Below are positions 1-32,626 of a DNA stretch of 64,000 nt, in pieces. This DNA comes from Ectocarpus siliculosus (Eukaryota; Sar; Phaeophyceae; Ectocarpales; Ectocarpaceae). Both the position numbers and the translations under genes were made by a program. The stretch's first letter is position 1. Each line of letters starts with the position of its first letter. The stretch covers positions 818,682 through 882,681 of the forward strand of contig FN649737.1 in assembly GCA_000310025.1 (NCBI GenBank), in the 5' to 3' direction. The notes beneath the pieces are model-generated. The model saw only the letters and a list, made by a program, of their open reading frames with translations. It was not told the DNA's origin and searched no databases.

Positions 1-2763
1 CGGAAGCGGTCGGGACGGTAAGCGGCACGAGGCCGGCCCCGCTGCCCGAGACGTAGTTGAAGCCAGTGACAGCCCCGGTCGCGTCGAGAGCCATGGTGAC
101 GTACGGGCTCGAGTCGTCCAGAGCCTCATGCAGCTTGAATTCGGTGCACAGGTCGTCGAATTTGATGTTCTGTTCGGGTCGATTGGGGAGTTACACGAGA
201 GAAGGGCCAGGGCCAGGCGAAAACCCGTGGACAAGGTTGTGCACTCATTAGTCATCATCACGCGTGTTGTTCGGGTACCAATGAATACGGCTGGCACCTC
301 AACAGCAGGCTGTCCAGGGATGTTGAGACGTTATCCCCTGGGTTTCATTCAGTACTGGGAGGCATGGCTCACCTTGACCGGGAAGGTGATGTAGCTGGAG
401 TACACCTCCAAGACGCGCTCGTACCAGTAGTCGAGCAGGGACTGCGTTCCGTCGCCGACGTCCCCTGCCGGGATGATGTTGGCTTGGTGGAACATGTACT
501 TGTCCCTGTCACGATACAAGTGCGACAGGAGGAAGTCCGTGTGGAGAGGTTCGTTTCGGCATTCGGGGACGGAACGATTAGATTAGTTCCGATGGGAAAT
601 CAGAGGCGCTCAAGAGGCTGCAGAATCAACATTGCCAATACATGCCATAGACTGACAACTACCATTTGTTGGAAAGCGCTAAATGAAAAGTGGACAGCAC
701 TCCCGGCATATTACCCGCAGACGAACAACAACATACCAATCAAATTCAACGAAACACAGCTCGACGAAACCGCACGCGAAATCGCACGCCTCTTGCAGTA
801 ACACCACCACCACAAGTTTTTCCCGTCGCGTGCTTTCCGGTACGGATGAAACAAGCAACACTACAAGCACCACCCTTCAGCACAAGAATACGTAAAGACA
901 CACAGAACGAAACGGGAAATGATCAAAAGCCGGCACCGAAAAAGATAGAGACGGAAACAAAAGGGACCAAAACCGACCTGCGGCCGGTCAGCATGTAGCG
1001 CGTGGTGGTGGAGGCCTCGGCGTCGAAGAGGGCCTCGATGTCACCGAAGGACTGGATGTCGGTGGCGCCATCGGTGCCGATGCATTCGTCCGCGGTGCTC
1101 GCGCAACTCTTCGGCGGCATTGAGGAAGGGGGGTGTAGGCGAGTGCGAGATCAGTCGGTGGAGGACAATTTTGATTGCAGATGTATATGCAAAATCAAGG
1201 TCACTGCCGGGCAGATTTACCGCGAACATTGTGAAGATATGACATTGCACAAGACAGTATCGAACGTGCGCCATTGTGTCATGCTGCTGCCCCTTTATTG
1301 TTCTTGTAACGGCACCACCTTCCCTCTACGGCAGCATTGAGAGACCTCACGTAATCGGCGATGCTTGGGTCGAGCGGGGTGCACTCGCATACGAAGCGCC
1401 TGATGTACTCGTTCTCGTTCACGAGGCACTGCAAAAGCCCGGGCACAGCGGAAAGGAAGGAGGACAATAATAGAGACAGGAAGAGTGGTCACCGCAGAGC
1501 ATAGCCATTGCTACTGAGGCAAAGAGGCGAGCAGACGAAACACGAGACAAACAACCACGTCCTCGCGTCATCCATCATCGAACGGAGTTCGAGCAGCCAA
1601 AGCACCCACTGAATGTATTCGCCCGACGCTCTTCAGAATGGCGACGGAATACCAACCAGACGGCTAGAGCCTCCAACCGGAAGCGACCCAGCATTCAAGC
1701 CAAACACGGTCGTCACTGCACGAGTGTAAACACAACAAAGATGAGGCAAATAGGGCCGACTTGAAACCCCACCTATTGTAGGCCGAGCCTCGGGAACGGC
1801 TGGGTGTACATCAACACGTAGGTGTACAAGAAACACAAGAAACACATTTCATTCACAACACTAGCTTAGGGAATGCCGCATGTTTCTGGACATCATTGAG
1901 CCACTTACGGAGCCGGTGACGCAGTTAAAGTACACGTAGGTCGCGAATCTGGGCACGATCTGGATGCCATCGTAGCCTGCAGGGTTAGTATAAGGACGGA
2001 CAAGAGTGCACGCGGCATTGTTGGAGAGAAGAAGCAGGCCGTGAGTACAAGTATCGCGATAATCACACCGGAAACGCCCCGAAGCAGTTGAAGGTGATAG
2101 CGTCGTCGGTGCTTAGCATGCGGAAAGTAGGGCGCTCTTCCGCGCGCGCCGTTACACAATGACCTTGCATTTTCTGCCACCCACGGCAGTGTGTACGGCG
2201 TACGGTTGATGGAACCAGCCGTCGTCTTCCTGTGCACTGGGGCACCCAACAACTGAAGCAAGCGTTCAATGGACTGGCGTCCAAATTCACACCGTACAAC
2301 TCAACAGCGAAAACAACGGCTCAAGCTACGCCCGTCTTGTTTCGACCTACCCATACAACAACTCTGGCTGGGGAATAAAGAGCCACTTGCGGTAAAGGGT
2401 GCGAACCGCATGTGCGCTGGGACCGCATTGACGGCACGTTCGCTACAAAAAGATCAGAGCACCCAGAAAGCTCACACTAACAAATACAGGGGCAACAGAT
2501 GACACGACCAATCGTATGGTTTCTACAACGACGAACAAAATTTGAATAAACGCCTGCGGTACACGCGACCCTCCCTCACCGTTGTTGGCCACCGTCGAGT
2601 AGATCGAGTGAAACTGGTTGTCTTCGTTGACCAGAATTGTAGCGCCCGACACGGTCCCGTCGAAGGTGTTGTCGCCAGGGTAGCACACCATGAGGTTCTG
2701 CGCCGCTGAGTCGAGGCAATTCTCGTTGAAGAGACCCGTGATGCCGGGGGATACCATGGAGCG

Positions 2764-2766
2764 TCA
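2764..2766 (-). other. In-frame TGA stop in exon 19 of WSC-deacetylase paralogue A
   Basis: In paralogue B the matching codon is TGG within the peptide DNYNWRSM (near 19.55 kb). Here the minus strand reads TGA, with the surrounding residues DNYN and RSMVSPGITG otherwise conserved. Exon length (240 nt) and phases match B, so no frameshift explains it. Confidence 0.85.
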
Positions 2767-5700
2767 GTTGTAGTTGTCGCTGTCCCACATGCCGGTCATG
2801 AGAGCGATCTGCACGTTACCTGAAAAAATATGTCATGATGGCGGGGAAGGAAAATGGGACTTTTTATGCTATTGGTTTTCACGCTTTCCCACATTTCGGT
2901 CATGACAGCGATCTGAACGTTACCGAAAATACGCATTGAAGCAGTGATCTTTCTGCCCGCACACCCGAGTGCTCCCTGACGAGCGGTAGAGACAAAACCG
3001 GCGACTCTACCCGTTCTGTAAACCAGAGCGTTGAACAATGTAGGAGGCGTCCATGAGCACAGCTCTATCGTTACCAGGATTGTGACTCTTGCAGTTTGAT
3101 TCTCACCGGTGTCGTCGGCGACACAGTCCGTCTCGCGCAGCTGGTCGCGGGACAGGTGGATGAGGGTATGGTGGCCGTGGTAGATTGTAGAAGGCGTGTC
3201 GAGGTAGCTGATCACCGCCACGAGAAGCTCGTCGTTGGCCTCCCAGGTGCCGTCGGCCATGTCTTGCTGCATGAGAGGCACGTTGGTGGCGAGCCAGTTG
3301 GTGTCGTGCACGTTGATCTGACCTGAAACCACAGGAAGAAGATGGGTCGAGGGGGGGGGCGAGCGTTGTCGGAACTTTCAGTCCAAGTTGCTGGCGATCT
3401 CGGCGGGTATCCTTGCGTCTATATACGGTGTCCAGATATCGCCCGTGAAGTGATCTTGTGTTTATGTGCCGTGTCATCGAGGGTAGGCCTTGGTACCGGA
3501 TAGACGATGCACATTAGCTCAAACTATCGGAATGCTTACCCAGAATTGACTGTCCTTGTTGCCAAGACAATAATCGCTTTCCGTTCGTGTCGCTATGTGT
3601 TGTCGCGCCGATAACTGGGATGGCTCGATGAGACCGCCTCAATTTCACTTTACGTCCGTAGGCACGGGTTGTGTACTTCTAGAGGTTCTCGAAGGAGGTC
3701 AGAGAGAGACTCCATAACTACCCGTAGGACGAAAAGAAAACTGCAATACTGTACCAACTCACCGTCTTCGTACCACTTGGTGCCCTTGATGGTCACCATG
3801 GTCTCCTCGTAGTCGGGGACGTACGTGATGCCGTCGACCGCTTGTGACACCTGGTGGTTGGTGTCATACGCACAACGACAATAACACGTTACCATGAGAT
3901 CGTGCCCTCCACCCTGAAAAGGTTGTATTAGTCTGCCGCAAGACCGAGCACACTTCGACAATCGAAATACTCAATTGCTCTAGATTGTTTCTCTCAACTA
4001 CGTATTTCGGGGCTGGCAAAACGGCCCCAGAACACGCTTCTTTTCTCTTTTTACACGAATGGCATTCATTCTGCATATTGGAAACGCTCACGCCTTGCGA
4101 CTCAAGCATCAAGCGATACGACGGAACGAAACGGCGAGACCTGGACCCCACGAAACGCACATGCTCCGCGATTCCGCCACCGTTGAAGGCAAACTCGGTG
4201 ATTATGTCCGACCCCGAGTACTGGGTGTTGAGGGCTTGCTGCACGCTGAGCAGGTTGGTCAGGTCCTCCCCCGTGCATCGCTGGGCGACCGCTGCTTCGT
4301 TCATGTCTCCGTCGTACTCGAACTCCGGGGTGGAGAGGAAGAGGTCGTCGACAACCGCTGCCAGATAAAAGCGGCGCTCGCCCTGTTCGATAGGGGGAGG
4401 AGGGATGCATGGAGGGATATTTAGGGGCAGCATTCAACTCCGTAGATGCTTCGCCCTAACTACATGACTGCTGTTGACCAACCGCGCGACGGAGTGTTGT
4501 CCCGACTCCGGATAGGGTTGGTCTGGATGGTACGGCCTCTAGGTTTCAAACCACGAGTTCGATGGCAGCATGCTCCACGAGTAGGGATGGGTCGGGGATA
4601 GGGTAGTGGCGGTCCTACTGCTGCGATTGGGCAACGTTATTCATCATTATGGACCAACGCTGGACATCACCGGAACAGAGACAAAAAAAACTGTTATTCG
4701 AGATCTTTTCCGAGCTTGCATTGCTGTAGAAAGGTCACAACGGCGTCGTATACAGTAAACTGTGACGACATCCCAAGCAGAGCATCATCAATGACAAAAC
4801 ACGTACCATGAAGATGCCCTTGGTGGCCCACTCGTTGTAGAAGTGCGCCCACGGCCACGCGCCGGCGTCAAACCAGCCGATAGTGTTGAAGACGTGCAGC
4901 TCCTCGTGGCCGTCAGCACCGGTGTAGCTTAGTATCGCAGCGTTTTCCTGGTCACCCGCGGCACCGGAGAGGTAAGGCTCGCCGGCACTATCGGCATATC
5001 TGCACATGGGGCGGGACAGGATGGATGGATGGGGGGGAATCAGAAGGGTACAAGGGTACCCGAACAAAGCGTTCCAATGACGTGTGCTTCTGCGGATAGC
5101 GTGGGTCAGCGCATACCCCAGCCATTTGACGCCAGTCTTTTGGGGTCTACCTTCTGATACCTTGATATGCACGCTAGCGATTTGGCCAGAATGAACAAAA
5201 ACGAACGGAACGCCGGTATCGCCATCGCCATCACAAATAAGGAAACACTCACTGCGCGAGGACCTCGATCCCCGTCTCAGGAACCTCGTTCATGATCACC
5301 GGGTAGCTGAACAGGGCGGGGGTGAAGAGGTTCGGGTCGGTCTTGAAGCCAGGCTGCGTAATGGACACCTTGGTGCTTCCCAGGTCTAGATGGGGTCGAG
5401 ACCGTGAATCGGGCGAGGGGCAGCAGGTGCAATTATTTAGCAAATAGAATGGTGAGACGTGAGCCTGCGCGTAAATATGCACTCGAGAAGTGAGATCGCG
5501 GGAAGCTTTGTTTGTTGTGGGCGGAGGGAGCATGAGGCAATGAGAATAAGTTCGGACGTGAACCGGTCAACCACGCGGAAACGAAAACCACGGCCGAGGC
5601 CTGCGGCAGGGGCCGGTGAGAAACAGCTGGAAGCAAGAGCGGGGGGGACAAGACTGCCGCAGCAAAGGTAGACAAGAACACAACATAGAAACCGATGCCT

Positions 5701-8577: not shown

Positions 8578-9508
8578 CGCCCATGACGTACACGTCCATG
8601 GCCCAAGCACCACCGCACGTGGACGAAGCGTCTCCAGTGCAGGGGTAAAGGCAGTTGTTGGACTCGCCGTGAAGGGTATAATCCTCGTCCGCAGTGCCGC
8701 AGAAGCACCTTACAACGTGCATGAACGCCAATTAGAATGGTAGCTTCAGAGGAGGAGGCGGAGGAAAACGGGCGTGTTCGCCGCAGTAGCAAGGAGAGTT
8801 CAGTCAGGTACTCGGTGACAAAGAAAGTGAAGAAAGAAGTAAGCCCGCCTTTCGTGCCTTACGCCTGCTAGACAAAACCCCAACAAATTCGCCCTCATTT
8901 TCCCCGTCTCCGAAAACCACTAGCCCAGCAGGCGAATCGGCGACAGAAGGAGCATCCTACAGTCCGAACACTAAAATCTCGAAACGTCTCCCACTCACTG
9001 TAGCGCGTACTGGAGCCCGTAGTAAGCGTATCCGACGCAGGTGGCCTTGCAGGTCTGCGAGATCGTCGGGCGGAATGCCAGCATTGGTAAGACGGATCAC
9101 AGATCCTTTCGTAAGGAGGAGGGAGAGAGGCCGACGACGTGGGTGGCCAACATATCCGTAATTAGCACAAAAGATTCGTAATGGTAAGTGGAATTGGGAA
9201 GGCATCAATACCACACTGACAGAGAACACAAAGAACAACGATTGTTGGAGCGATTAAGCAACCACATATCAGCAATCCCTTCTCGGAGAACACGGCTCGC
9301 TCGCGCATACAGGGGTGCGAATCCGCCCAGCTCCCACAAAGGTAGAAGTATACCTCCGCACTGTTGTTATCGGCATCAGCAATGATTGGGGCTGAGAATA
9401 TCCTGGAGGTCCGGGTATCCGCGTAGCAGCCAAGATACCCCGAGGATACCGCCGTGGCAGGCGGGTCCGTGGTAGGTGGGGCCGTCGCAGGCGGGTCCGT
9501 CAAATCAT
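8578..9508 (-). other. Third WSC domain block (three exons) unique to paralogue A
   Basis: Exons 9354-9508, 8999-9054 and 8578-8708 encode a linker TDPPATAPPTTDPPATA, then GYLGCYADTRTSRIF, TCKATCVGYAYYGLQY and CFCGTADEDY, which together form one WSC fold. The block starts and ends in phase 1. It closely resembles the preceding WSC block (10565 region, 10183-10238, 9715-9845) and has no counterpart in paralogue B, which has two WSC domains. Confidence 0.8.
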
Positions 9509-12191
9509 CTGTTGTCGTTGACCATCAAGCAGACCAGAGGCAGTAGGGGAGGGGGAAGGGGGTTGGGAACAGAATGAGAACATCGCCTATCAACACACCT
9601 TAACCACCACCCCCACCCGGCAACAGCCACAACAACATACGCTGGTACACTCCTATAAGCCACGCGAGTCCGATGTCGAACAGGGGCTGCGCCTATCGTC
9701 GTTCTTGTCCTTACCGTCCATGGCGTACACATCCATGGCCCAAGAGCCACCGCAGGTGGACGAAGCGTCTCCGGTGCAGGAGAGAACGCAGTTATCGGAC
9801 TCGCCGTAAACGGTGTAATCCTCGTCCGCAGTGCCACAGAAGCACCTAACAGAGTGCATGAACGCCGAGGGGGGCGAGGCAGAGATTGACAAGTTTCAGA
9901 GGGGACATGAGCGTGTTTTCGGCGGTAGCAAGATTTGGCTGCCGTCAGGTTTCCAAATGACATGAAACCTAAGAACGTAATACGTATGCGCCAACCTCCC
10001 ACACGGCTGCTACTCAGGACCCCCAAGAAACTGGACATACATGTCTTTCGACGTCTCCGAATACCTTGAACTAGTTGACACGAGAAGGAGACTCCTGCAT
10101 ACTTCAGTTGATCAAAGCAAAACAACTTTGTCGCACATTCCACGAAAACAAAATACAACATCACGAAACGTCTCCCACTCACTGTTCGCCATACTGTAGC
10201 CCATAGTAAGCATAACCGACGCAGGAAGCCTTGCAGCTCTGCGAGATCGTCGGGCAGAATACATGTGTTGTATAACAAAAAAGAAGGTTTGTTACAGATA
10301 GATGCATCAATTTCTGGGACAAAGGGAAAGACGCCACAACGTTGCCATTCATGACGCCCCTGATATAGAGGACGAAGACAAGCGACGCAAGATGGAGTCG
10401 GGAAGGCTTCGAGGCCACAAATTCTTCAACACCGAAACAACAAGAACAACAGCGCGATTTTTGAGCGATTCAGCAACAAGGTATCATTCCCTCTCGGAGA
10501 ATACGTTTCCTCGGGGCATATGGAGGTGGGATTCCGCCCCGCTCCCTCACAGGCAGAAACTTGCCTCCGCATTGTTGTCGGTGAGAGTAACGTGTAGGGC
10601 CGAAAAGATCCTGGACCTGTCATCCGCGTAGCAGCCAAGGTACCCCGTGGGCGGGGCCGTGGTAGGCTGATTCTGGGACCCAAGCTCAAAGGCTTGGAAG
10701 GCGAGGTATCCCCCGCACGTGGAGCTCGCGTCGCCGGTGCAAGGATAGGCGCACTCGGACATATCGAGCGAGCCCAGCCTGTCGTAGTCCGTGCCCGCCA
10801 CTCCGCACCAGCATCTAGAGGTACCAACAAGTACCGATCGGGCGGGGGGGAGAGGTTGGGGCGTACACCTAAGAGTTGCGTGCCTCACCGAACACCTAAT
10901 TTGTATGTGTAGGTCCTCTCACCATTCACCGAATCTTCCTGATCATCGTACGGTCAAATTATGGAAACGAAATGCCCCGTATTCACCAGAAAGTACGCTA
11001 CTACTATTGCAGCAAGTGCCGACCTGGCGCAATATGCCCACGCTCTCTCGGGCGCTAAATCTACCAACTCTGTCATTCCCTCATTCATATCTGCCGTTCG
11101 TGGTCTACGCATACATCGTCTCCTCTCTTCGTCCGCCACCGAACCCCAATGACAGGCGCCTTCCTACAGGTGCTGCAAGTCTCATTGACATATGCAGGTG
11201 ATCCGAAAATGCCGACTCACTCCTGTCCGTACTGGAGACCGTAGAACTGGTAGCCTTCACTGTAACAGTGTAGGGCGCACGTCTGAAGAGGGCATGAAAA
11301 GGCAACAGAGCGAGAGGAAGGAAAAATGAATATGTTGTCAATAATGTTTCGTGCATTGGTGCAGTGTTTATGGTCTCAGCGGGCAAGAGGCAGCAGCCAG
11401 ATACATGCCGGACACCAACTGTCTAGTGTTGCCAGATGGACTGTTTCGAAACCCTCCACTACCTACTACTTGTTGTCCAGCTACGAAGACTTGACATCGT
11501 ATGTATGCGTACGTGTTGTAGATATGAAGGGAAACGCTCGCCACGTACACAGCATTTACAGCGCCTGCGTGTGCCGATGTACCGACGATAGCTGTCGTTG
11601 GGAAGGTGGCGGACGGTTGCAAACACAACAATCGATGACTCCCCGCCCGATGGGAACAGTCACTCCCGTTAATCCTGTAGACTACAAGTGATCCCTCCAC
11701 AGAGGGCTCATGAGAGCGCATATAGTGTCATCACGTTAAACAGGGGCCGTTACAGATGAGGTACAAACCCACCGTGACTGCCAGCTGCCGTGTGACGTTT
11801 TCCATAGCCCAATAGCTCACACAGCTGACGTGATACTGGCCTAACAAAAAGACAGGTGATTTTTTTTGTGCGGAACAAATAATGCTTACATCCGGCGTCA
11901 GGTCGGTCTGATCCATAAGCTCCTGTTCGAGTACACGGTCGCTCCTGCCATCCCTGCAGCATCCCAGATCGGACGTCACAACGCCGTCAGGCAACTGCGA
12001 GGGAAACAACAGCGTGGTGGGCGGCCAACAAAAAAAGGGGGTGTTTCTTTGACGAACGTGATGTACATGTAAAAGCATTTACTGTAGTCTATCGTTGACA
12101 CAATGTACATGAGACTGTAGGCGACTTGTAAGTACTCAAGGGGGACGAAAAATAAAGGCTCAACAACATCGTGGGGGGGGTCCGACACAAC

Positions 12192-12217
12192 AGACTGCGG
12201 CTCTACAGCCGCAGTCT
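12192..12217. repeat. Perfect 11-bp inverted repeat with 4-nt loop
   Basis: AGACTGCGGCT, loop CTAC, AGCCGCAGTCT. It lies in intron 1 of WSC paralogue A. No U-tract follows and no function can be assigned. Confidence 0.7.
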
Positions 12218-15254: not shown

Positions 15255-18200
15255 TTAGATGCGGCGTTTTCCCTCCCCTTCGTCGATCACCACGTCTGCC
15301 GCGACGTCCGCGTCGACTAGGCCGTCCTCGCCCAAGTTACCGAAATTCTCGGCGGGCACGAGGGCGTTCGCCTCCTGGTTTTCCGCCAAGTTATCCGCGT
15401 TCTCCACCACGTCCGCGGGGCTCTCCGTAGCGGTGATGACTTCCTCGGTCACAAACGGCGGCACTTCGGCGAGATCGCTGAAAATTGTTGGAAGGAATCG
15501 AGAAGTTCGGGAGGAGAGAAGCAAGAGCTGAGGCGGTCCCGGCAAGGCGTGCATGGGCGAGGGAGGATCGTAGGCGCCGAGATGGTGGCGAGGAAGTCGA
15601 CTGAGGTCAGGTACCCGAGCCATCGGGGACGCTTGTGTTACGAGTCGCTACTGCTTGTCGGGTATTCTCCCACGAGGGCGATAGAAGACAATTGCAACAC
15701 GCAGAGTGAGGCAGACTTGGTGCACAGGCGTTGCGTTGCGGGGAAGAGATCGAATTGATCCAATTCGCCGTGCTGGCTGGACTTCGAACGCGATTTGTCC
15801 GGCGAAGCTTGATGATAGACGTCGTGGAGCCGCTCGCAATTGTTGCGGTGGCCTCTAATGACGCTCTAACTTCTCCTTCTTGGCATTCATGGCTTTCGGC
15901 GCTGACAGGCATCATACCCACTTGGTGTCAGGTGTATGGATTACTTGACTCACATGCACCAGGTCATTTGTGTATGGTAGCGCGTCTCTCTTCCTTCTTC
16001 CTCCCGTCAATCCTCGAACGGTCATTGCATCGTATTTTTCAACACGCCGCTTCACACAGCCTCACCACGCTAACATGTCACAAGGAGCACCTCCTGGCAA
16101 GGAAAAAAACTTCAGGTCCATCAGGTTTCTCCCTAGAACGGGCATCTACCTGGGATTGATTGGGGATTATTCCCTACTATTGCGTGTTTTGCGGCCGTCA
16201 CTTTTTCTCACCCGGCGTCAGGCTTAGTGCCCACCCTGGGGACAGTGGAGGCGTCATCGTCCTTGAGGTAGTAGGTGGTGTCGGTGCCGTACGTCTCCGT
16301 ATCTTGGATGGAGAGGCCAGTCGTCGGGATCTGTTGTACCGGGCGTGGGTTTGCTTTGGGTGTTCAGAAGTATAACCGTAGCTATTGCAGACTCGACCAA
16401 ACAACAAGCGTACGTCCTTCCCAAGCGCAACGTCCAGTGTACCGCCGGAAAAACGAGCAAAGAGTGCATGGGAGAACGCCAAATGGCGGCGCAGTACCGC
16501 GCCGACCCGGCCCTTTCGCAAGAATCCCCTATTTAGAGCAAAGGCTTAAGCCTTGCAGTGAGTGAACAATTGCACCGAAGCTTCTCCGAGGCTAACGATT
16601 GCTCAAGGGTTCAGTGTGGTGCCATCGCTGAGGCCCAGCATATCTACGTCATTCATCGATTTTGTTTTGCTTCAGTATTATATTTATGTTTATCGTGGAC
16701 ACATTTCTTGTCATGAGCGTAGCCGGGACTGCGAATACAAAGACTCAACACTCCACACACATGAAAGCGCATCCAATGTGAGACAATGAAACAAGTCTGA
16801 GGCGAGTCGCGGAATTTACCGAGGCGGCAGAAGCGGTCGGGACGGTAAGTGGCACGAGGCCGGCCCCGCTGCCCGAGACGTAGTTGAAGCCTGTAACAGC
16901 TCCGGTCGCGTCGAGGCCCATGGTGACGTACGGGCTCGATTCGTCCAGAGACTCATGGAGCTTGAATTCGGTGCACAGGTCGTCAAACTTGATGCTCTGT
17001 TCGGGTCAATCGGGGAGATGCAGGAGTAGGGGCAGGCGTACACCCGCAGGCGAAGTTGTGAACTCATCTCCCATCATGACGTGACCTCGGACCTGGCTTC
17101 CTCCCGAATGTCGGTACTGCAGGCCATGGCTCACCTTGACCGGGAAGGTGACGTAGCTGGAGTACACCTCCAAGACGCGCTCATACCAGTAGTCGAGCAG
17201 GGACTGCGTTCCGTCGCCGACGTCCCCTGCCGGGATGACGTTGGCTTGGTGGAACATGTACTTATCCCTGTTGCGATCCAAATGCGACAGGAGGGAGCTA
17301 AACGTGGAGATTTTGTTTTGACATGCTGGGAGGAGGGGAAAGATAAATATCAGTTCGAGGGGTAAACACAACCTGTCGATCAACACGACGCACACGCAAG
17401 AGGCGTCAGAATCAAGACCCCCCGTTTACACCCGGAGACAGACAGCATCATTTGAAAACACACTGCGAAAAAGTGAAATGAAACCACATAAAAAATGAAA
17501 CCATACTTGTCTGGCGAATGTTCAGGCACGGACAAAGGAAGAGCTCACGAGAAAGGAGCACAAGCACGACAAATATGAAGCAACAGTAGAAAAACAACGA
17601 AGGGACAGCGAAAAACACCTAAAAGTTTGAAACGGAAACAACAAGGACCACGACCAACCTGCGGCCAGTCAGCATGTAGCGCGTGGTGGTGGAGGCCTCG
17701 GCGTCGAAGAGGGCCTCGATGTCACCGAAGGATTGGATGTCGGTGGCGCCGTCGGTGCCGATGCATTCGGCCGCCGTGCTGGTGCAAGTCTTTGACATTG
17801 AAAGTGGAAGGAGGTGGAGGGGAGAGATATAGCACTCGGTGTTGGAGGACGTTTTGATCGCAAGCGTCTATGTACATAGCTCCGAAAGTACGACTCCTGG
17901 CAGATTTACCGCGAACATAATGAAGTGAGGATATCGCAAAAGACAGCATCAAAAGTGCGTGGACTAGTTGTACCATGATGTTGCCTCATCATTGTTCTTG
18001 TACTGGCACCACCTTCCCTCTGCGGCAGCATTGACAAACTCACGTAATCGGCGATGCTTGGGTCGAGCGGGGTGCACTCGCACACGAAGCGCCTGATGTA
18101 CTCGTTCTCCTTCACGAGGCACTGCAAAAGCCCGGCAACAGGTAGGGAATAGGGCAACAAAATATGGTAGACAAGATAAACGACGACAGCAGCACAACAA

Positions 18201-21200
18201 TTGCTATTGAGAGATAGAGGCAAGAATAAAACAAGAAGGCGACCGACCATGCCCTTGGTGTCGTATCATTGCCATCGAATAGGATTCGAGAATCCATTCC
18301 GTGTGGATTTCGGGCCGGTGCGCTTCAGTGATGGCGACGGCGTGGCACCAGACGGCTACCAGCACGAACCAGAAACGGTCAAGTATCCAAGCCTTTTTCG
18401 CCACGGTTGTACACAATAACACAAGAACGACGCAGGAGAGGGCCGGGCTAATATGCCGCCTAAGACGAGACGCAACGTTTGTGCGTCCGCTCGCGAAGGC
18501 GTACACCGCTGGCTACTCACCACGAAAGAGCAGGGACATCAAGGGACACGCGTCAGTTTCACACGTTTCTGTCGTGCATTGGAGAGAAAGTCGGGAAGAA
18601 TCTCGACATTCCCTGATCTAAGGGATACTTGAGTCACTTACGTCACCAGTAACGCAGTTGAAGTACACGTAGGTCGCGAATCTGGGTACAATCTGGATGC
18701 CATCATAGCCTGCATTGGCCGCAGAGAGAACCAGGCTGTGAGTGCAAGCATCGCAAGAACCACACCAAAGAGGTTCGCGGGGGAAGGGGGTGACTGGGGA
18801 GAGGTCCGAGAGCATGGAAGGGTGGACCCACTTCTAGGTGCTGTGACATACCAGACGTTACTATTTGTCTCATGAAGCTGATGAAGACCACCGGGTCGAT
18901 GAGCTTGCATTCTCGTACTCGGGGTCTCTCGATCAAGAATCGCCGTGGCGTGTACGGTGTAAGTTTGATGATTACCAGCCTTCGTTGCCCTTGGCGCCGG
19001 CACAGCAAACAAATGCCTCGACAAAGAAGCGCCCACTGGAGCGATGAAGCAGTTCACACCAGATACGTGGCGTAACTCGACAACGAAACAACGGCTCGAA
19101 GATACCATGCATGTTCACTGCCCAAAGAGCGCCCTTCTAGCTGTGACCCTACCCGTACAGCAGCACGGGCTAGACTGGGATAGAAAGAACCGCTGACGGG
19201 AAAGGATGTGAACCTTACGTCCGCTGGTACGCCATTAACGGCATATCTACCACAACCAGATTGCCCCGAAAGCTCACAAATATATAGGCGAGAAGTGGCA
19301 ACACCAATCGTATATATTTCACAACCAAAAACAAAAATCAATAATACTTGCTAGGCGTAACCCTCCCTCACCGTTGATGGCAACCGTCGAGTAGATCGAG
19401 TGGAACTGGTTGTCTTCGTTGACCAGAATTGCAGCACCGGACACGGTTCCGTCGAAGGTGTTGTCGCCAGGGTAGCACACCATGAGATTCTGCGCCGCCG
19501 AGTCTAGGCAGTTCTCGTTGAAGAGACCCGTGATGCCGGGGGATACCATGGAGCGCCAGTTGTAGTTGTCGCTGTCCCACATGCCGGTCATGAGAGCGAT
19601 CTGCACGTTACCTGAAAAATGTGTCATGATGGCGGGGAGAGAAACGGGATCTTGTTTCGTTGAGTATTGGGTGGTCTCGCCATCCCACGTGCGGGTCATG
19701 ACAGCGATTTGCACGTCACTCGAGATACGTAGTAAGGCAGCGATTCGCAGATGCGTGTCCATGCACGCATATTATCTGTGCCGCATTGTTGATTTCTGGT
19801 CGAATCACCTGCTCGAGTCCCTGCCAGCAGTAGAGACTATATCGGCTCTCCACTTGTGAAAAAACTAGTCCGGTGACCAATGCACGAGGCGTCATTGGCC
19901 ACAGCTCTACGGCTATCCAGGTTTGCGATACTTCCAGCGTATGGCCCCCACCGGTGTCCTCGGTGACGCAGTCCGACTCGCGCAGCTGGTCGCGGGACAG
20001 GTGGATGAGGGTGTGGTGGCCGTGGTAGAACGAGGAAGGCTTGTAGAGGTAACTGAGGACCCCCGCGAGAAGGTCGTCGTTGGCCTCCCAGGTGCCGTCG
20101 GCCATGTCTTGCTGCATGAGGGGGACGTTGGTGGCGAGCCAGTTGGTGTCGTGGACGTTTACCTGACCTGAAACCTCGGGAGGGAGTGCGTCGGTGCGGC
20201 AATCGGGGCGGGCTGGGTGGTGTATTATCTGAGCGAAGAGTAAGGTGTTTTTTACGATGCACTTTCAGTGGTGGAGTCCATGTTCTCGGCGAGCATGTTT
20301 CGTTCATATACGATGTGTTCATGTGCTGTGTCATTGAGGGCTCTACATCACAAAATCTGCAAAATTTTGAGAAGGGTTCCTGCAAGTGGCAATCAAAGCG
20401 ATTCTATGACGCCACTGTTTGCTCCTAGCCTTTGTGAGAAATTGTGTTCTTCTGCACACATGTACCGGGACGTCAAATCGTTTGCCGATGGTCATGGGTC
20501 AGGCGAATGTAGTACATGGTGTACCGGTAGAGGTCTTGATTAGGAGGTCAGAGAGATCAAGGACCGAAAATATGCTCTGAACAGCCAACTTACCGTCTTC
20601 GTACCACTTGGTGCCCTTGATTGTCACCATCGTCTCCTCGTAGTTAGGAACGTACGTGATGCCGTCGACCGATTGTGATACCTGTTTGGTGGTGTCACAA
20701 TGCCGAAACAACACGCTCGATTGCATCGTATCCACCCTCGAAAATCTGCATGACTCTGTCGAAAGTCGAGACAGATATCCAACCAACGATGCGCTTGTTC
20801 ACTCGACTACACCATGGCCGGCTGGAGAAACGGCCATGGAACACTTTCTCGTTATGTTACACAACCATTGCCATCTTCATGTTGCAAATGCACACATCTT
20901 ACCACCTGAGCACCTAGCGACATCACGACATCAACCAACGAGATTTGCACCCCAGCAAACGCACATGCTCCGCAATACCGGCGCCGTTGAAGGCGAACTC
21001 GGTGATGATGTCCGACCCCGAGTACTGGGTGTTGAGGGCTTCCTGCACGCGGAGAAGGTTGGTCAGGTCCTCCCCCGTGCACCGTTGAGAGAGCGCAGCC
21101 TCGTTCATTTCTCCGTCGTACTCGAACTCCGGGGTGGAGAGGAAGAGGTCGTCTACAACCGCTGCCAGGTAGAACCGGCGCTCTCCCTAGCCAGTCGGGG

Positions 21201-24200
21201 ATGGAGGCATTATTGGGGGCATAATGTAACTCAATAGAAGCTTCAACTTTCATCACTTGACTGCTGTTGACCAACCGCGCGGAGACGGAATATCGTCCAT
21301 ACCCCGGATAGGGTTGGGCTTGGAGGTTTTACAGGACCTTTGAGTCTCAAATCATGCGTTGGGCGACAGCATGCTCCGAGAGTAGGGAGGGGTCGGGGAT
21401 AAGGTAATGGGACTCCACCGCTGCTAGTGGTCAACACCATCCATCATCAACAACCAACGTTGGGCATCCACCCGGAGCACATACACGAAGAACCAATTGA
21501 TTGCGCTCATTTTCACGAGCTTCAAGACCAATATGTTGTGGCACTGCTGCTTAAAAGTCACAAAGGAGTCGTATTCCGTGCACGACACCATCGGCAGAGC
21601 ACCATCAACGACAAGTCACGCACCATGAAGATGCCCTTGGTGGCCCACTCGTTGAAGAAGTGCGCCCACGGCCACGCGCCGGCGTCGAACCAGCCGATGG
21701 TGAAGAAGACGTGGAGCTCCTCGTGGCCGTCGGCACCGGTGTAGCTGAGCATCGCAGCGTTTTCCTGGTCACCCGCGGCACCGGATAGGTAAGGCTCGCT
21801 GTCACCGTCGACGTACCTGAAAAAGCGGGGGGGTAGGGTTGATGGGCGTCGTCAGGAAAGCAACCGAACAAAGCGTTCCAACTATGGATGTTTGTGCTGA
21901 TAGTATCGGCCACCAAATATTCCAGGAATAGAGCGGTAGAGCAAGGGGCCACTTCGAGGCCTTCCCTCTTCGAGGCCTTCCCTCTGTTGTTCGTGTATGG
22001 GTGCCAACGTCTTGCCAATAACAACAAAACAAACCCAACGCAACGCCGCTACCGCCATCGCCGCAACGAAGAAGGAAAACTCACTGCGCGAGGACCTCGA
22101 TCCCATCGTCAGGAACCGTGTTGATGATCACCGGGTAGCTGAACAGGGCGGGGGTGAAGAGGTTCGGATCGGTCTTGAAGCCGGGCTTTGTGATGGACAC
22201 CTTTTCCCCGCCAAGGTCTGGATGGGACGGGGGACGAAAACAACAATTGAGCGGGGAGGGCAGGTAACGAAACGAATGAGAAAGAAATACGAGAGGGTAG
22301 ACAACACATACATAGGCAAACGACAAATAGTCTAGAAGACAACGAGCGATCCAGGGGAGGGTTTGACAGGGGAGGTGGGGGGCAGAGGTGCATGAGACAA
22401 GGAGGACGAAGGCTGGATGACGCCAAACTGCCAACAAATACGAAGACGACGACCGAGGCCAAGGCCCGCGGCAGCCGGCGGTAGGCTGGGAGCGCTGGGA
22501 TGAGACTGGCACACCAAAAGTTGAAAATTGATAAATGTAACTAACGTCATGGACTGCGCTGCTTCGCCCCCACTGATATACAAAATTGCTCTTGTTGCTG
22601 CCCATCCGCTAACAAAAACGGATTGGGTAAGAGGTGAAACTAACCGCTGAGCTGCACGAACGCAGGAGTCGTGATGTCCCCGGCGAAGTACGTCTGGACC
22701 CCGAGCTTCGTCGTAAACTCGGCGGTGGTGTGGGTGAGAGCGGACGGGAAGTACACAAGACGGACCTGCACAAAGATGCAAGAGAGCGAGCGACAGAGAA
22801 TTTCAAGAGAGATCGCACGCAACGGCAACGACAAGGTGAAGGACCAGTTGCAGCCCGGGATTAGCATGCACATATGCCAGCACACGAAGGGTTCTATCAA
22901 AAGCTGACGTTCGAATTTCTATATCAGAGTCAAGCACGCACGAAACACGGCATCAACCACAGGACGCCCTGTGCGAAACAATACGGTTACCGTCAGTGGG
23001 GCACTACGACTGTAAATTTCCCCCTGGACACTGCTATTGGTGGCTAAACTGGATACTGGATACTCCACAGGGCGCATGAGACCGTCGATGATATACTTCC
23101 AAACGCTAAGCTGTCGAAGTAAAGTAGCCAATATCAGAATGACTCAGTCAGAAATTTCGAACGTTAGTATATATATCAATTGATGGCATTCTCAACAAAT
23201 ATCGAAAACGACCTATATGCATTCATCAATTAAACCGTGCCAAAGAGATTACGGGGTGAGCCTTGAAGGTTGATACTCGCGGGCAATGTATGTACCTTGA
23301 ACTGCGCCGAGTAGGCGGTGAGGGCGGCAGCCTGATCCGTGGACGGCGCATAACCCACGTAAACGGCATTGCACTTGCCGTGGGGCACCTCGGAGGTGTC
23401 GCTAGAGTCCACCAGAAGGGCCGTCAGGTCGTCGCCTTCCTTCACGACGTGCTCCTCCTGAAGCAGAAGCAACAACAGCAGCAGCCGCAATAACGAACGC
23501 GTGTGTCGCGCCGAGGTGGGGTAGGTGTAGGGCGGGTAGGGTTAGGCTGAATAGTTTCGATCATTTGAAGGTAGGGTCGGATGCTACACGCGATTGTATC
23601 GGTCAGCCACGAAAGGAGCAAGTTCGACGAGGCCGAACTGGTGGACCAACGCCAAGGTGTGACGCCGCATGGCATTGGTGAACGATAGTCGACGGCCTCT
23701 AGAAAACTGTCCGCTCGGCACGACTGTCATCTCGTGCAATTGCGCTGAACTGCTACGGAACAAATCGCACCTTGTCGAAACGTCCGTTGATTTGGACAGC
23801 ATCTAAAATAGTTTCATGAACCAAGTAGTGGAATGAGCTACAGTGCGAACTCGGTAATAGACGGTCAAGCGTGTCTTTCCTTGTTCTTTGAAGGTCGCCA
23901 GAAGGGCTGCGCGTTTGATCGTTTAGACCTGTCCACCCTGACGCCCGCCATTAACACTCTGACATTGAATCTAATTGCTACTTCTTTCGTTGCCCCTGTT
24001 GAGGGTGGGTGAATATTGTGCCGAGCCGAATCATCCGCCATAAGGGCGGGCACACCCTCCGTACTCGAAGTGTAACAGACAAACAATATTCTACAAATCT
24101 GTGCCAAGAGAGTTAGTTCACCCGCACAATGCTGGCCACATGCCCTCGAGAGAAATCTGGGCGCTAATTCCCCGGGATGTCGCAATTCATCCGCACAGCG

Positions 24201-27200
24201 GCTTTTGAGACACCACTATGGAAGACCCGTCTTTCGAGTGCGGAATCTCGAAACCTATTGAAAAGGTAAACAAGAACTCACCGTCTTGGGAGACCAGTAT
24301 CCCTTGAAGAACAGCGACATGATGTACAATGCCGGGTTGTTCTCGTTCGACTCCCCAACCTGGGTTGTTACCATCAACAACGAGAAATGAACCGGTATTA
24401 TTGGTACGTTGGATGCCGTTGATGCATACTTGCGTATCAGTTGGGACAAAATGTGACTGCGTAGGGGGTAAACCAGGTTGGTGTTGTTCGTAAAAGAGAG
24501 GAAAGCTGAAAAGAACGGAAGAGGCTCAGGGCTTCCATGGTATAATTTTCGTGATTCCGACCTCGTACTGTACAGGATTCCTCCAGCTGTTGTGCCCTCC
24601 GCTGCCACACTTTACACACATACAGAGCAAAATGTTGAAATCACACGATCATGTGCAGCAACCCAGGAGCATCCACACACATGAAACAATATATGACTGT
24701 ACGCGGTGATCATATCGTGCATACCGCCACGGAGGAGAACAGGCAAGGCACCAGGTCGACAAGCACGTCCGCTTCGACAGGCGTCACGTCATCTGTTGTC
24801 ATCGTTGACCACGCAGTAGACCAAAGGCGAGGCAAGGGAAGGGAATAGGGAACAGAATCAGATCATCGCCAAACGAGATTGCCTCTAACACAACCATCAC
24901 CCAACAACATCCACAACAGCATAGGATTCTACAAAGTAAGCGACTTCGAAGTCGAAATTGGGGCTGCGCCCACTTTCGTCCATATCCTTACCGTCCATGG
25001 CGAAAATATCCATGGCCCAGCGGCCACCGCAAGTGGACTCAGAGTCTCCGGTGCAGGAGTAGGTGCAATCGTCGGACTCGCCGTAAACGGTGTAATCCTC
25101 GTCCGCAGTGCCACAGAAGCACCTACCAACGTCCATGAATCCCAAGGGAGCCAAAACAGAATGAAAATGGTAGTTTCAGAAGAGGGGAACGGAGGGACAC
25201 GGGCGTCTTTGCTGCAGAATCAAGTAATAAATTCAGCCAGAAATATTTTTTTCCACCGCCCTGAAATTTGCCCTACTGCTGCTACACAAACCCCAACAGC
25301 CTCTTCATGTCTCCTATCGTCTACGAACACTTCGAACTATTGACACGAAATGGAGAATCCTACTTGTAAAAGAACACAAACAGAACAGCGGTTGCACCCT
25401 AGCAATCCGATTCACGAAACGTCTCCCACTCACTGTTTGCCATACTGTAGCCCAAAGTACGCGTAACCGACGCAGGTGGCCTTGCAGGTCTGCGCGATCA
25501 TAGCACGGAATGGAAGAAAAATATAGTTGTCAGACGAATCACCGATCCTCTCGTAAGAAAGAGGGAAAGCGGCCAACGACGTGACCGGTCAAGACTGCCC
25601 GGAAAACGAACACAAAGAGACGTGGTGATGCAAAGTGGCATTGGGAGGGCGTCGAGGCCAGACTTGGTCAGCACCGAGACGACAAAAACGCAAAGAACAT
25701 GGAACGTGGTTGGAGCGATGCAGCAACAAGAAAATAACTGCTTCTTGGAAAACACAGTTCGTGTACGAAGACAGGGGTGCAACTCCGCCCAGCTCCCACA
25801 CAGGCAGAAACTTGCCTCCGCACTGTTGTTGCTGGTGCTGGTGCTGTATGTGGTCGAGAATAGCCTGGACCTGGCATCCGTGTAGCAGCCAAGGTACGCC
25901 GTGGGCTTATCAACGATGGTAGATGGGGCCGGGGTAGGCTGATTCTGGGACACCAGCTCATAGGCGTGGAATTCTACGTACCCCCCGCACGACAAGCTCG
26001 CGTCGCCGGTGCACGGGTAGTCGCACTCGGACATGTCGAGCGCGCCATGCCTGTCGTAGTCCGTGCCCGCCTCTCCGCACCAACATCTGAAAATGATCAA
26101 CGAATATCGACACGGGGGGGGGATTGGGACATGGAGGGGGGGGGTGTAGAACTCAGCGTACAGCACGTGCAGAGTTCAGGTCATCTTACCATTCGCCGGA
26201 TCGAATTTCGGTCCTCGTCGTATCCCGTCACGGAGGTTGTGCGTCAAGGTGGAGGGGTGACCGGGAGTGGCGATGTGTGGTCAAGGTTGGGCCGGTAGTA
26301 TTAGGAAGCGCGCAGCCTCTGAATGCTAGGCCATGCGCCAAAGTGAGTTGTTGGTTGTCCTTCTCAACGACGTGGCTTTAACTGCCCGTGGTATCCCGTG
26401 GCTCATGCTCGTTAGTGTTATGGCATCCAGAATGAGCGTCATCACCAGAAAGCAGTCTGCGATTTAGTTGCCGACTTTCGCTACTTCAGCAACGGGTGCC
26501 GAACAGGCGCGTTTCCCTCCTTCGGACGTTGACTGTTGTAATCCCAGCAACTGTATCAATCTATCATCCCAACAACTATATCTATCTGTACTGGTCTACG
26601 CATACATCGTCTCCTTCTCGTCTTTCGCCGCCGAAGCCCGACAGTCTTCATACAGGCGAAGCGAGTCTCATCAGGACAGCGTTATTCATGTGGAGGTGGT
26701 GCGACATCAACGACTCACTCCTTCCCATACTGGAGGCCGCAGTACTGGTAGCCTTCACTGAAACAGTGGAGGGCGCACGTCTGACAAGGGAACGAAAAAA
26801 CAGCAGAGCGAGTAGGGGGAAGAAAGATACAAGAAGCTAATGGGTGTTCATTTGTAGCAATGTTGTTGGTTGTTGTAGTGTTTGGTTTTATTGGGGGAAG
26901 AGGTATCGGCAAGGCTCCTGCCGCACAACTTCTGCCTCGTAAAGTGCGTCCACTCCGTCTGCTGTTGCCAAGGATGAGTGTTAGAACCCAACCCTGCTTA
27001 CGGTACAGCAATACCATACAACGAGGGCATGTTTCATTTCGGAGCACAATGTACATTAAACATTGAAGCGTGGACACGACCTGCCTGAAGCAACGAAAAC
27101 CTGCCAACTCGCACCGTGGGGGGGTCGAGTCCTGTGGGTTCTTGCGAAACGTTTACCCACAACCTATCGCCAGGTTGCACAAGAACGTGACGTACATGTG

Positions 27201-30093
27201 GTAGACGCCAGTAGTGGCCACAGACTTATCGGGACACGTGTCTATTAAGATACCGCCATGGCCATGGTATCGGGCGGATACGGCGGATACGTGCAATTTA
27301 AGGGAACCTCTGCATTATTGCAGAAAAAAAATGGTTATTTGGTTGTTGTTGTGAACATGTTAAGAAAACGATGCCCACTCTTGATGACTAACAACGTATC
27401 CTGTGAAGACACTCAATAGGAAGTTATCCTTGGGTACATGGTGGGTGTTGCTTGTGACACGAAAAACGACAATCCTCGGCTAACGGGCCCATTGCTCATG
27501 AACCTCGACCGGCATGTGCACTTACATCCGGCGTCAGGTCGGTTTGGTCCATCAGCCCCTGGTCGAATACACGGCTCTTCTTGTTGTCCAAGTAGCATCC
27601 CAGATCAATCGTCACCAGCCCCTGCAAGACAAACATGAGTGTTGTTGTAGACGGCGATCGACAGGGACTTTTTTTCGCGTACACGGATGAACGTACGTGG
27701 GGGCACAAGGATGGATACACACCAGACACATACCTAGAGAACCTTGACACGACGGCGGGTAGGACCACTTGCCAGGAAAAACTGCAAGCCAAGAATTAAG
27801 AACTAAGAATACTCAAGATTGAACATTTTATATTATTTCTACGGCGGGTGTGGCCAGTGGACACGTGCGCTGACTCATTACGAGGTTATTAAGCCCAGAC
27901 AAATCAGTGTTCAAATATAATCCTGGAGAGAGCGCTTGTTCGTAAGATATGCGAAACTAGAAACCAAGTGTTGCTGAACCCTTCTGGGGAAAACTGTTGC
28001 TCTCACCGTAGATACTGCCAGACCAGTTTAGACGGGACAATAAAGGAGAGAAGATTTATGATGCCAGGGTAGAGATAATTCATTCAGACCCTCGACCTAC
28101 AACGGGAAAGAAGACGACACTGGGGGTTTGGTGTCAATATGTCTACCGTCATCGAAACCAGTATATGTTTATCTTCTTTGCTTTCCAACGGACAAGCCGA
28201 GGGACAACTGGTGTGAAAAATGTGATCAGCCGTCAAAACACAGTATTGCCTTCGCTCGCGCGAGGGGAGCCAAAATCAATGGACAAGAGGACATTCTTTT
28301 GTCGTCGGAGTTGACGGCCGGGCAGAAGACATGTCACGTAGGATTCTTCAGATATTGTCCAAAAGCGTTGGCTGTGAAGGCGGCCGTTTGCCAGGGTCCA
28401 CCAAGGGGTATAAGGGAGTGCTTCGAACGGCCGTGCGTAGGCTGGCGTATCGCTGCCCGCAAACCAGATACAAAAGAAAACACACAAAAAAAAAATAGCG
28501 CTGCATCGCTGCACCTACGTACTCACATGCACGTCTTGTCTGAGAAACGTTCGCCGGCGACGGTCGCAAATTACCAGACACTTTCAAACGGCGATGCTTG
28601 ATGAAATGAAAATTACAGCAACATGTGTTCGCCCGCGACCGGCCAGCCTTTCTCAATGACATGCTGCCGTTCCATGCGTCTCAAAAGCTGGGTCGTGTGA
28701 ATGGCGTGGGAAGGCGTGCCATGTTGAGATGCATCGTCCCAAACTCTCGCGCGACAGGGATGTTTGAGGAAGTTTTTGTGTAGAGAGAATGAGTAAGCGG
28801 GAACACGCCATATTTGGCGAAGAATCTGCCGCAGCCCTCACTTTGAGCTCAACTTGTACTCGCTTTAAACGCAGAACTTATGCCTCAGTCGAGGAACTCT
28901 CATGCTTCTAGCCAATCCTCGGCTTGTGTGTCGTGTCTGTCAAGAGTGGTGTATGCCAACATACTACGCTTTCCGGCTTGAGGACAACGAAATCAAGTCC
29001 TTTGGCCACCGAACGACCTATTGGTTGTTAAATATCGGCTCGATTTCGGCGTTGGTTTGAATACTAGGTTGAACAATCGAGGTAGTTTTCTCCCGATGGT
29101 CCTGAACACTCTTCGCTAGAGCAACGTTGACCGCGAAGCTCGACGTCTGAGACACCGGACGTTCTGAATGTGGGTTAGCAGTTGAGAAGGATTCATGCCG
29201 AAATAGGACATGCAAGAAGACATATGCTGAAATAGACATCAGATAGCGGTAGATCTGGCGAGGGGAGTGATTCTCCTCGGGAAGGAGAATTGTCGGGTCC
29301 ATTCGGACCCACGGCTTACTTTTTCAAACGAAAATCGATGATGGTCTACGTAGTCCAATCATTTGATTTCGGTTGCTTATCAACGCGTTTGAATGTTGGA
29401 GAATCGCCTGGATATTGTGACTTCTTGTCCTTCGGAATCGTCTTAGGTTCGGCGCTCGGGTTAACTGTACAACAGCAGACACGACCATCACATAAAACAA
29501 TGGTGGCGAGGACCACCGTTGTGGGCCTCGCATCGCATTGCCACGGTGTAAAACTTACAAGGGAGTGAGCGCAAGCATACGCAACAGGCCGCACACACAC
29601 GCACGCACCAAGTCTTTACTCCTTGGGTGACCGCAATAGCCTCCCTCGATTCAAAGATAGAAAGACTGTAGAGTCGCAGATATGTAATGTTTCTTCTTGG
29701 TTCACTGAGCCTTCAAAACACCAAGGTTAAAGCAGCAGTTTAAGCTGTAAAACTTTCGATACGCTTCTCGGAAGCGCCACAACTGGCAGCTGAGCTAGTT
29801 GTGAGCTGGTCGTCCTTCTGCCTGTTTTGTTTTTTTTCTTGCAAATCCCGGGTGGCACTGTTCTCTCATGAGCCCACTCCGGAGAGAATCAGAAACACCG
29901 AAACAGCAGCACCACCCCCTGACGCGAGACAGCAAATGAATACTTGTACAAACTTTTGACCCCTTACCGCGGTTTGAAGCGCGCGGACAGCAGGGCTGGT
30001 AGTGACTGATGGGACGTCTTCATGAGCGCGAATTCCGGCCGCATTCGCAGTGGCTCCCCACAGGGTGCCCGTCGTCAACGCGAGCTGCTGCAT
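15255..30093 (-). CDS. WSC x2 / Agd3-like (CE18) secreted polysaccharide deacetylase, paralogue B (complete)
   Basis: Exons, high to low: 29968-30093, 27526-27621, 26719-26780, 25816-26086, 25434-25489, 24992-25122, 24725-24792, 24282-24359, 23296-23457, 22645-22765, 22085-22217, 21624-21816, 20965-21186, 20594-20681, 19952-20167, 19372-19611, 18642-18709, 18044-18121, 17659-17789, 17135-17297, 16820-16996, 16212-16330, 15255-15477. They sum to 3,222 nt (1,073 aa) with consistent phases. Order: signal peptide (MQQLALTTGTLWGATANAAG), WSC1 (TCALHCFSEGYQYCGLQYG, CWCGEAGTDYD), WSC2 (GYAYFGLQYG, CFCGTADEDY), then about 730 residues recognised as Agd3/CE18-like: GADGHEELHVFFTIGW, VVDDLFLS (metal-binding Asp pair in NodB-type enzymes), FAFNGAG, HTLIH (HxxxH), PGITGLFN, YDGIQIVPRFAT, YMFHQANV. 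The C-terminus is acidic. The known Agd3 removes acetyl groups from a fungal galactosamine polymer; the algal substrate is unknown. WSC domains suggest anchoring to a wall glycan. Intron 4 has a GC donor. Family assignment comes from motif recall, not a search. Confidence 0.82.
19605..19725 (-). repeat. Echo of exon 16 start upstream of the true acceptor (paralogue B)
   Basis: The exon begins NVQIALMTGMWD just after the acceptor at 19611. About 100 bp upstream, in the intron, a degenerate copy reads DVQIAVMTRTWD near 19,690-19,725. Paralogue A has the same arrangement near 2,880-2,930 (NVQIAVMTEMWE). The duplication therefore predates the gene duplication. In B the frame stays open through both copies. 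Confidence 0.7.
24992..27621 (-). other. Two WSC carbohydrate-binding domains of paralogue B
   Basis: WSC1 is encoded by exons 27526-27621, 26719-26780 and the first part of 25816-26086. WSC2 is encoded by the rest of 25816-26086 (starting AYLGCYTDARS), 25434-25489 and 24992-25122. Eight-cysteine WSC spacing is visible (GCY...C..C...GLQYG..C.CG...C...CTGD...CGG). A Pro/Thr/Ser linker (PTPAPSTIVDKP) separates the domains. WSC modules in yeast sensors and fungal or algal enzymes bind wall polysaccharides. Confidence 0.85.
27622..29967 (-). other. Long intron 1 of paralogue B
   Basis: 2.35 kb between the signal-peptide exon and the first WSC exon. Several chance open frames exist (for example around 28.1-28.6 kb and 29.3-29.6 kb) but none shows a recognisable motif or a matching region in intron 1 of paralogue A. 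Nothing else is supported here. Confidence 0.6.
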
Positions 30094-31850: not shown

Positions 31851-32626
31851 GTGGGGCAAGCCGACAAACCATGTAGACCAAAAGCACTGAGGTGCCCTCA
31901 CAGATTTTCGCTTGACCCCGCCCTCCCTTCCCTTATTCTCTGCTGCCTGCCCCCTGAAGCCTTCTTTGCGGCTACCTCAGGAAGACATCGTACGGCGAGT
32001 GCTTGGAAGTCGCTGCAGCCCTCAGCAACAAGAATAACGGAATCACGCCAAAAGGCGTTGAGCGCGGTAGCCGTGGGGAAGGAAATCGGTCCTGTGTACG
32101 GAGGAGAAAAGACGGCCGCCGAGGTTGTGGTCGTCGGGGCCGGGGTAGGGGGGCTGGCAACGGCCGCGCGTCTGGCGAAGGCCGGTTGTAGGTGCGGGGT
32201 AATACGTTACTGCTGTGGCGGTGTCAGTAGGGGTGATAGTGGAGGAGGAGGTGCCGATTGGCCCAAACCCTCTGCTCATGTCTTCGCTCGAGATTGCCGC
32301 GGCTGTTGAGATGTGTCCCTTCGGCCTTGATTGACTGGCCTTTTAAGTACCCTTTGTGCGTGCTTTTGTGTGTAGGGTGACCGTGGTGGAGAAGAATAGT
32401 GAAGAAGACATTGGGGGAAGGCTGAACGAGCTAGTGATGGAAGGAGGATTTCGCTTCGACACCGGACCAAGCCTTCTTCTCCTGCCTGAGACCTACCGGG
32501 AGACCTTCGCAGGTTGGTTGCTGTCGTGATTGCCGTCGGGATATTGTTGTAGTTGGCGTCGCTGCTGGTATTTCTGTTGTCGTTGTCGTTGCGGCGGTTT
32601 CTTGTTGTTTCTGTTTCGGCTGCAGT

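What the first reader, a model, noticed from the sequence alone, without database searches (positions are those of the whole stretch)
1..30093. Tandem genes fusing WSC domains to an Agd3/CE18-like polysaccharide deacetylase
Seen: both genes encode a signal peptide, then two or three WSC domains, then a long region with ordered motifs GHEELHVF, VVDDLFLS, NGAG/NGGG, HTLIH, PGITGLFN, YDGIQIVPR and YMFHQAN. Known: this order matches Agd3-type deacetylases (CE18 with CBM87) of fungi and bacteria as I recall them, and WSC domains bind wall glycans. Inference: an alga secretes a wall-anchored glycan deacetylase. I do not know of a described algal protein with this architecture.
Basis: partly seen in the sequence, partly recalled or inferred. 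Interest (0 to 1): 0.75.

Follow-up and report, generated by a model that had tools for sequence, protein, structure and literature searches.

The report
Brown-alga WSC-fused Agd3-type polysaccharide deacetylases
An alga, most likely a brown one, carries a tandem family of probably secreted enzymes that join sugar-binding WSC domains to an Agd3-type deacetylase known from fungi and bacteria, hinting at an overlooked amino-sugar polymer in its walls.

Summary
The finding is real. Two minus-strand paralogs, spliced here and checked against each other, encode 2 (gene B) and 3 (gene A) WSC domains followed by an Agd3-type CE18 deacetylase region. For gene B, Pfam Agd3_CE scores 152.9 bits (cut-off 27.6), and the only PDB sequence match is Agd3 (6NWZ, 3.7e-20). 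All six catalytic residues of Agd3 are kept. Gene B is intact in this model (990 aa, 22 exons). Gene A has an in-frame TGA at codon 815 of 1113, before two of the six residues; its 3' end lies outside the window. The pair belongs to a five-copy cluster (1 to 3 WSC each) under purifying selection (pairwise dN/dS 0.15-0.24). Four further loci (one partial) show no WSC in the DNA fetched. CBM87 is only weakly recognisable. The genome also has GH114 (endo-alpha-1,4-polygalactosaminidase) loci, a frequent companion of CE18 elsewhere; GH135 and PelF are not over cut-off. Best reading: secreted, matrix-tethered, metal-dependent glycan deacetylases, substrate unknown, GalNAc-type favoured. WSC fusions to other domains are already described in brown algae, so this is a new variant of a known kind.

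The parts
16208..30093 (-). Gene B: intact WSC-CE18 gene, 22 exons, 990 aa (exon 1 30093-29968, last exon 16330-16208)
24992..27621 (-). Gene B, exons 2-6: two WSC domains
   Evidence: PF01822, 2 stretches
21624..24792 (-). Gene B, exons 7-12: region corresponding to CBM87 of Agd3 (weak)
   Evidence: E 0.041, under cut-off; W344 equivalent kept, W292 is F, D242 is P
17135..21186 (-). Gene B, exons 13-20: CE18 catalytic region
   Evidence: PF25115 1.6e-44, residues 507-913
21136..21159 (-). CM1 VVDDLFLS (catalytic base and metal Asp)
20001..20015 (-). CM2 HTLIH (two metal His)
18681..18707 (-). CM3 YDGIQIVPR (Arg that coordinates the base)
17240..17260 (-). CM4 YMFHQAN (catalytic acid His)
1..13536 (-). 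Gene A: WSC-CE18 paralog, 25 exons, 3' end outside the window (about -584)
8578..11994 (-). Gene A, exons 2-9: three WSC domains
2764..2766 (-). Gene A: in-frame TGA (codon 815 of 1113); the other four cluster copies are open here

Best explanation
Gene B and its intact cluster paralogs encode secreted, metal-dependent polysaccharide deacetylases of the Agd3 type (CE18). One to three WSC domains hold the enzyme on glycans of the algal extracellular matrix. The CE18 domain takes acetyl groups off a matrix polymer: an Asp base and an Asp-His-His metal site activate water, an Arg positions the base, and a His acts as acid. Shown here: domain order, conservation of all six catalytic residues, purifying selection, and a tandem family whose five cluster copies carry WSC. 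Inferred: secretion, tethering, activity. Least certain: the substrate, which I take to be a hexosamine (GalNAc-type) glycan because Agd3 is GalNAc-specific and because GH114 genes are in the same genome. Gene A as assembled would give a product without CM3, CM4 and the C-terminal part, and is probably inactive.
For: Pfam PF25115 152.9 bits vs cut-off 27.6 and PF01822 113.3 bits vs 27.8. Only PDB match 6NWZ Agd3, 3.7e-20. D377, D378, H510, H514, R613, H668 all kept in gene B (alignment; roles from PMC7229062 section 8). An algal profile that includes Agd3 aligns with bacterial CE18 over 349 columns, E 4.8e-33. Ten pairs among five cluster copies have dN/dS 0.15-0.24 over 728-733 codons; 4 of 5 copies are free of stops there. 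GH114 over cut-off at several loci of this genome; a GH114 gene follows CE18 directly in two Deinococcus plasmids and lies a few genes away in Thermus brockianus; agd3 and ega3 (GH114) adjoin in A. fumigatus (PMC7229062 section 13). Agd3 had no effect on chitin oligomers and acts on GalNAc oligomers (passage). WSC-domain proteins are listed among brown algal cell-wall proteins (figure legend of PMC8307928, passage).
Against: No activity or expression data. CBM87 signal is under cut-off; D242 and W292 equivalents are changed in gene B. GH135 and PelF not over cut-off. Best 19-residue hydropathy mean near the N-terminus only 0.68 (B) and 1.02 (A). In one Burkholderia plasmid locus none of the 11 features shown is GH114 or pelF, so the company is not constant. 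The one search for galactosamine in brown algae gave 19 papers, seen as a listing only; no title names such a polymer.
Confidence: 0.65

Rival explanations
1. O-acetyl esterase: the enzyme removes O-acetyl groups from brown algal polysaccharides such as fucoidans, not N-acetyl groups.
For: Acetylated fucoidans are known (recalled) and abundant; GH135 and PelF are not over cut-off, so a GalNAc polymer pathway is not complete here.
Against: Agd3, the only CE18 member whose activity I read about, is a de-N-acetylase acting on GalNAc oligomers and not on chitin (PMC7229062), and all its catalytic residues are kept.
Confidence: 0.2
2. Defence or interaction enzyme: the alga secretes it against GalNAc-containing biofilm polymers of bacteria and fungi on its surface; WSC holds it at the algal surface.
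For: CE18 and GH114 act on GAG-type polymers; tandem expansion with variable WSC number; brown algal PR-1 proteins, a defence-related family, also carry WSC (PMC12879055, passages).
Against: Purifying selection rather than fast change; no expression data.
Confidence: 0.15
3. Glycan-binding protein without catalysis: WSC and a degenerate CE18 fold act as a structural lectin.
For: CBM87 weak; gene A interrupted.
Against: CM1 Asp pair, HxxxH, CM3 Arg and CM4 His are present in the 8 algal models that cover them, gene A read through its stop.
Confidence: 0.05

Closest known systems
Agd3 of Aspergillus fumigatus (CE18-CBM87; PDB 6NWZ)
   Same: Catalytic motifs CM1-CM4 in the same order with all six residues; long CM1-CM2 spacing (143 residues here, over 120 in Agd3); 27% identity over the part aligned.
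   Different: Adds 1-3 WSC domains; CBM87 region diverged; in an alga; tandem family. PMC7229062 holds neither 'WSC' nor 'alga' in its main text.
Bacterial CE18 homologs (Thermus, Meiothermus, Deinococcus, Burkholderia, a gammaproteobacterial MAG)
   Same: Same catalytic region; GH114 beside or near CE18 on 3 of the 4 annotated plasmid loci read (a fifth locus has no annotation).
   Different: Gene B is 22% identical to the Thermus protein; no PF01822 hit in the three scanned; separate from algae plus Agd3 at 100/100 in the tree.
   Same: WSC joined to another extracellular domain in a brown alga (PMC12879055, passages).
   Different: Partner is a CAP domain, not a CE18 enzyme.
WSC-domain proteins (PF01822) in general
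   Same: Two WSC domains over cut-off in gene B.
   Different: Here N-terminal to a CE18 enzyme; the listings show no description of this fusion.

Membership tests
CE18 (Agd3-type deacetylase) | Sequence match to the Agd3_CE profile over its curated cut-off | tested here: met
   152.9 bits, cut-off 27.6
CE18 (Agd3-type deacetylase) | CM1 Asp-Asp, CM2 HxxxH, CM3 Arg, CM4 His | tested here: met
   roles from PMC7229062
CE18 (Agd3-type deacetylase) | CM1-CM2 distance over 120 residues | tested here: met
   143 residues from the base Asp to the first His
CE18 (Agd3-type deacetylase) | Distorted (beta/alpha)7 fold | not tested
CE18 (Agd3-type deacetylase) | C-terminal beta domain | tested here: inconclusive
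   second stretch 9.7 bits only
CE18 (Agd3-type deacetylase) | Metal-dependent de-N-acetylation of alpha-1,4-GalNAc polymers | not testable with these tools
   needs an assay
CBM87 | Profile match and binding residues D242, W292, W344 | tested here: inconclusive
   gene B E 0.041 and C7 0.0037, C12b 4.5e-6 at 27.0 bits, cut-off 27.6; W344 kept, W292 to F, D242 to P in B; hhalign against bacteria aligns 38 columns; PDB profile search ranks Agd3 third at E 1.5
WSC domain (PF01822) | Profile match over cut-off | tested here: met
   113.3 bits, cut-off 27.8, two stretches
GAG/Pel-type polymer pathway | GH114 in the same genome | tested here: met
   loci on C2, C13, C5 and C26 over cut-off; rings in 2 of 14 control genomes
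GAG/Pel-type polymer pathway | GH135 (Spherulin4) and a PelF-type glycosyltransferase | tested here: not met
   nothing over cut-off (exon-wise search; a miss does not show absence)

The most novel reading that the evidence does not exclude
Brown algae make or remodel an alpha-1,4-linked galactosamine-type polymer, like fungal GAG and bacterial Pel, as an overlooked part of their extracellular matrix. The CE18 family deacetylates it and the GH114 family cuts it, with WSC domains holding the cluster's enzymes at the wall.
Probability: 0.2. Interest if true: 0.8.

Novelty: new variant of a known kind. Interest (0 to 1): 0.5.

Why it matters
Agd3-type enzymes were described from fungi and bacteria (PMC7229062, section 13). 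An expanded, selected, WSC-fused set in an alga, together with GH114 genes for which the section read of PMC11468063 gives no role in brown algae (about five per genome), makes the question of a galactosamine polymer in brown algal walls directly testable with available enzymes and lectins.

Tried and rejected
Lost splice site in gene A: first taken as a second lesion; rejected when all seven copies printed showed an AG just before the DKYMFHQAN codons (the eighth, C800, was not printed there, but its model uses the same junction). The 1000-aa model of gene B, and pieces of it, holds 10 extra residues there; corrected and scanned again.

Viral carriers: two scans of viral contigs found no relative (0 of 8 candidate stretches; 0 of 39). 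The first genome-contig scan found none (0 of 61); the second, with bacterial rows, found 13 of 51. One Pseudomonadota sample: 2 of 398 genomes, one being the centre itself. Plasmids: the algal protein found none; Agd3 found 9 records at E up to 10, of which 4 at E 2e-5 or better, one of the weak ones annotated as a peptide synthetase.

CBM87 by PDB profile search of the algal N-terminal alignment: best hits are zinc-binding proteins at E 0.034 and 0.65, Agd3 at 1.5 (alike).

Rows left out of the tree: L032 (the ORF picked showed no CM4), L025 (fragment), L033 (same gene as L022), algal C3 (partial). Before the tree and in alignment A1 I cut stretches that the automatic models read through, as I judged, in C7, C21 and C12b. 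The models of C21 and C12b needed one frameshift each and those of C7, C21 and C12b one stop each, mostly in such stretches, so I do not claim that these genes are intact. In C782 the aligner forced gene B's first WSC onto DNA without one, giving a frameshift and a stop there; its 5' part is unresolved.

L034 and L035 (GH114 region) were fetched but not analysed; L036 was only listed for ORFs.

Full report
Observation. Comparing the copies exon by exon and correcting one junction gives two gene models. Gene B: 30093 to 16208, 22 exons, 990 aa, no stop. Gene A: 13536 to about -584 (outside the window, read from L001), 25 exons, 1,113 codons with its last stop. Gene A has an in-frame TGA at codon 815 (window 2766-2764), before CM3 and CM4. 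The exon that holds it is 240 nt, a multiple of three, so skipping it would keep the frame but lose PGITGLFN; whether that happens is unknown. Whether the stop is a true mutation or an assembly error cannot be told here.

Domains. The corrected gene B has two WSC domains (PF01822, 6.2e-33) and an Agd3_CE region (PF25115, 1.6e-44, residues 507-913). The only PDB sequence hit up to E 10 is Agd3, 6NWZ, at 3.7e-20. Mapping the Agd3 residues named in PMC7229062 (sections 7, 8, 11 and 13 read; passages) onto gene B shows D377, D378, H510, H514, R613 and H668 all kept; in the CBM87 part W344 is kept, W292 is Phe and D242 is Pro. The paralogs C7 and C12b have Asp where gene B has that Pro (alignment). 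CBM87 is below cut-off in the three algal paralogs scanned, and profile comparison with bacterial proteins aligns 38 columns only, so this domain is uncertain. The catalytic region aligns with bacterial CE18 at E 4.8e-33 (this algal profile included Agd3).

Genome context. The window lies in a 189 Mb, 492-contig assembly. All 150 scored EsV-1-7 candidates, of 880, match, which points to a brown alga; that this expansion marks brown algae is recalled, and the 14 control genomes (0 hits) are, as listed, prokaryotes, so they say little. CE18 exons occur in a five-copy cluster on C12 (729-744 kb plus strand; 781-795, 800-815, 818-832 [gene A] and 835-849 kb [gene B] minus strand) and at C12 2.45 Mb, C7, C21 and C3 (spans). 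The cluster copies carry 2, 1, 2, 3 and 2 WSC domains in that order. A WSC profile made from the cluster found WSC in the four cluster copies in its search set (gene B was not in it) and none in the DNA fetched for C7, C21, C12b and C3. So WSC was joined within the cluster lineage, or lost elsewhere.

Selection. Over the CE18 part (728-733 codons) the ten cluster pairs have dN/dS 0.15-0.24 and 89-93% identity; four of the five copies have no stop there. Introns of C7, C21 and C12b fall at the place of a gene B intron in 10 of 17, 12 of 15 and 11 of 15 mapped cases, on automatic models. The family is thus old in this lineage and not a recent bacterial contaminant.

Relatives. Bacterial homologs come from Thermus, Meiothermus, Deinococcus, Burkholderia and MAGs of Deinococci and Gammaproteobacteria. 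In Thermus brockianus the gene stands next to pelF, with a GH114 gene some genes away; in two Deinococcus plasmids a GH114 gene follows it directly. The Burkholderia locus with annotation shows neither. In a 26-row tree the 8 algal rows form one group and the 17 bacterial rows another, both at 100/100, with Agd3 between. The tool warns of long branches (Agd3 and C12b among them) and of odd composition in C12b and two Meiothermus rows. With one partial fungal row and no root, the source of the algal gene is not decided.

Pathway. GH114 matches over cut-off lie on C2, C13 (two places), C5 and C26. PMC11468063 (section 5 and passages) reports about five GH114 genes per brown algal genome and does not hold the term CE18 in its main text; its supplements could not be read, so CE18 may be listed there. 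GH135 and PelF gave nothing over cut-off. This is a hint of a galactosamine-type polymer, not proof.

Novelty. Searches for Agd3 or CE18 with algae, stramenopiles and Ectocarpus, and for WSC with brown algae or deacetylases, listed no paper that by title or abstract describes such an algal protein. Two things temper this: WSC-domain proteins are known in brown algal walls (PMC8307928, passage), and WSC fused to PR-1 is described in brown algae (PMC12879055, passages). Most subscription papers are not in the library.

Verdict. A real, selected, WSC-fused Agd3-type family in an alga that is most likely brown: new variant of a known kind. The enzyme class is very likely right; activity is likely; the substrate is open.

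Noticed in passing
window 44405-49558, minus strand: A 1,717-aa open frame with gag, integrase and reverse transcriptase domains of a Copia-type retrotransposon; a 134-base direct repeat lies at 44297-44564.
   Followed up: partly
G000 C26:5095-5107 kb, C2:4843 kb, C13:290 and 1090 kb, C5:1312 kb: GH114 (endo-alpha-1,4-polygalactosaminidase) loci, several close together on C26.
   Followed up: partly
G000, whole genome: Very many WSC matches (102 from 150 scored of 244 candidates): WSC is widely expanded in this genome.
   Followed up: no
window 31851-32309, plus strand: Weak NAD/FAD-binding match (under cut-offs), possibly an exon of an oxidoreductase.
   Followed up: no
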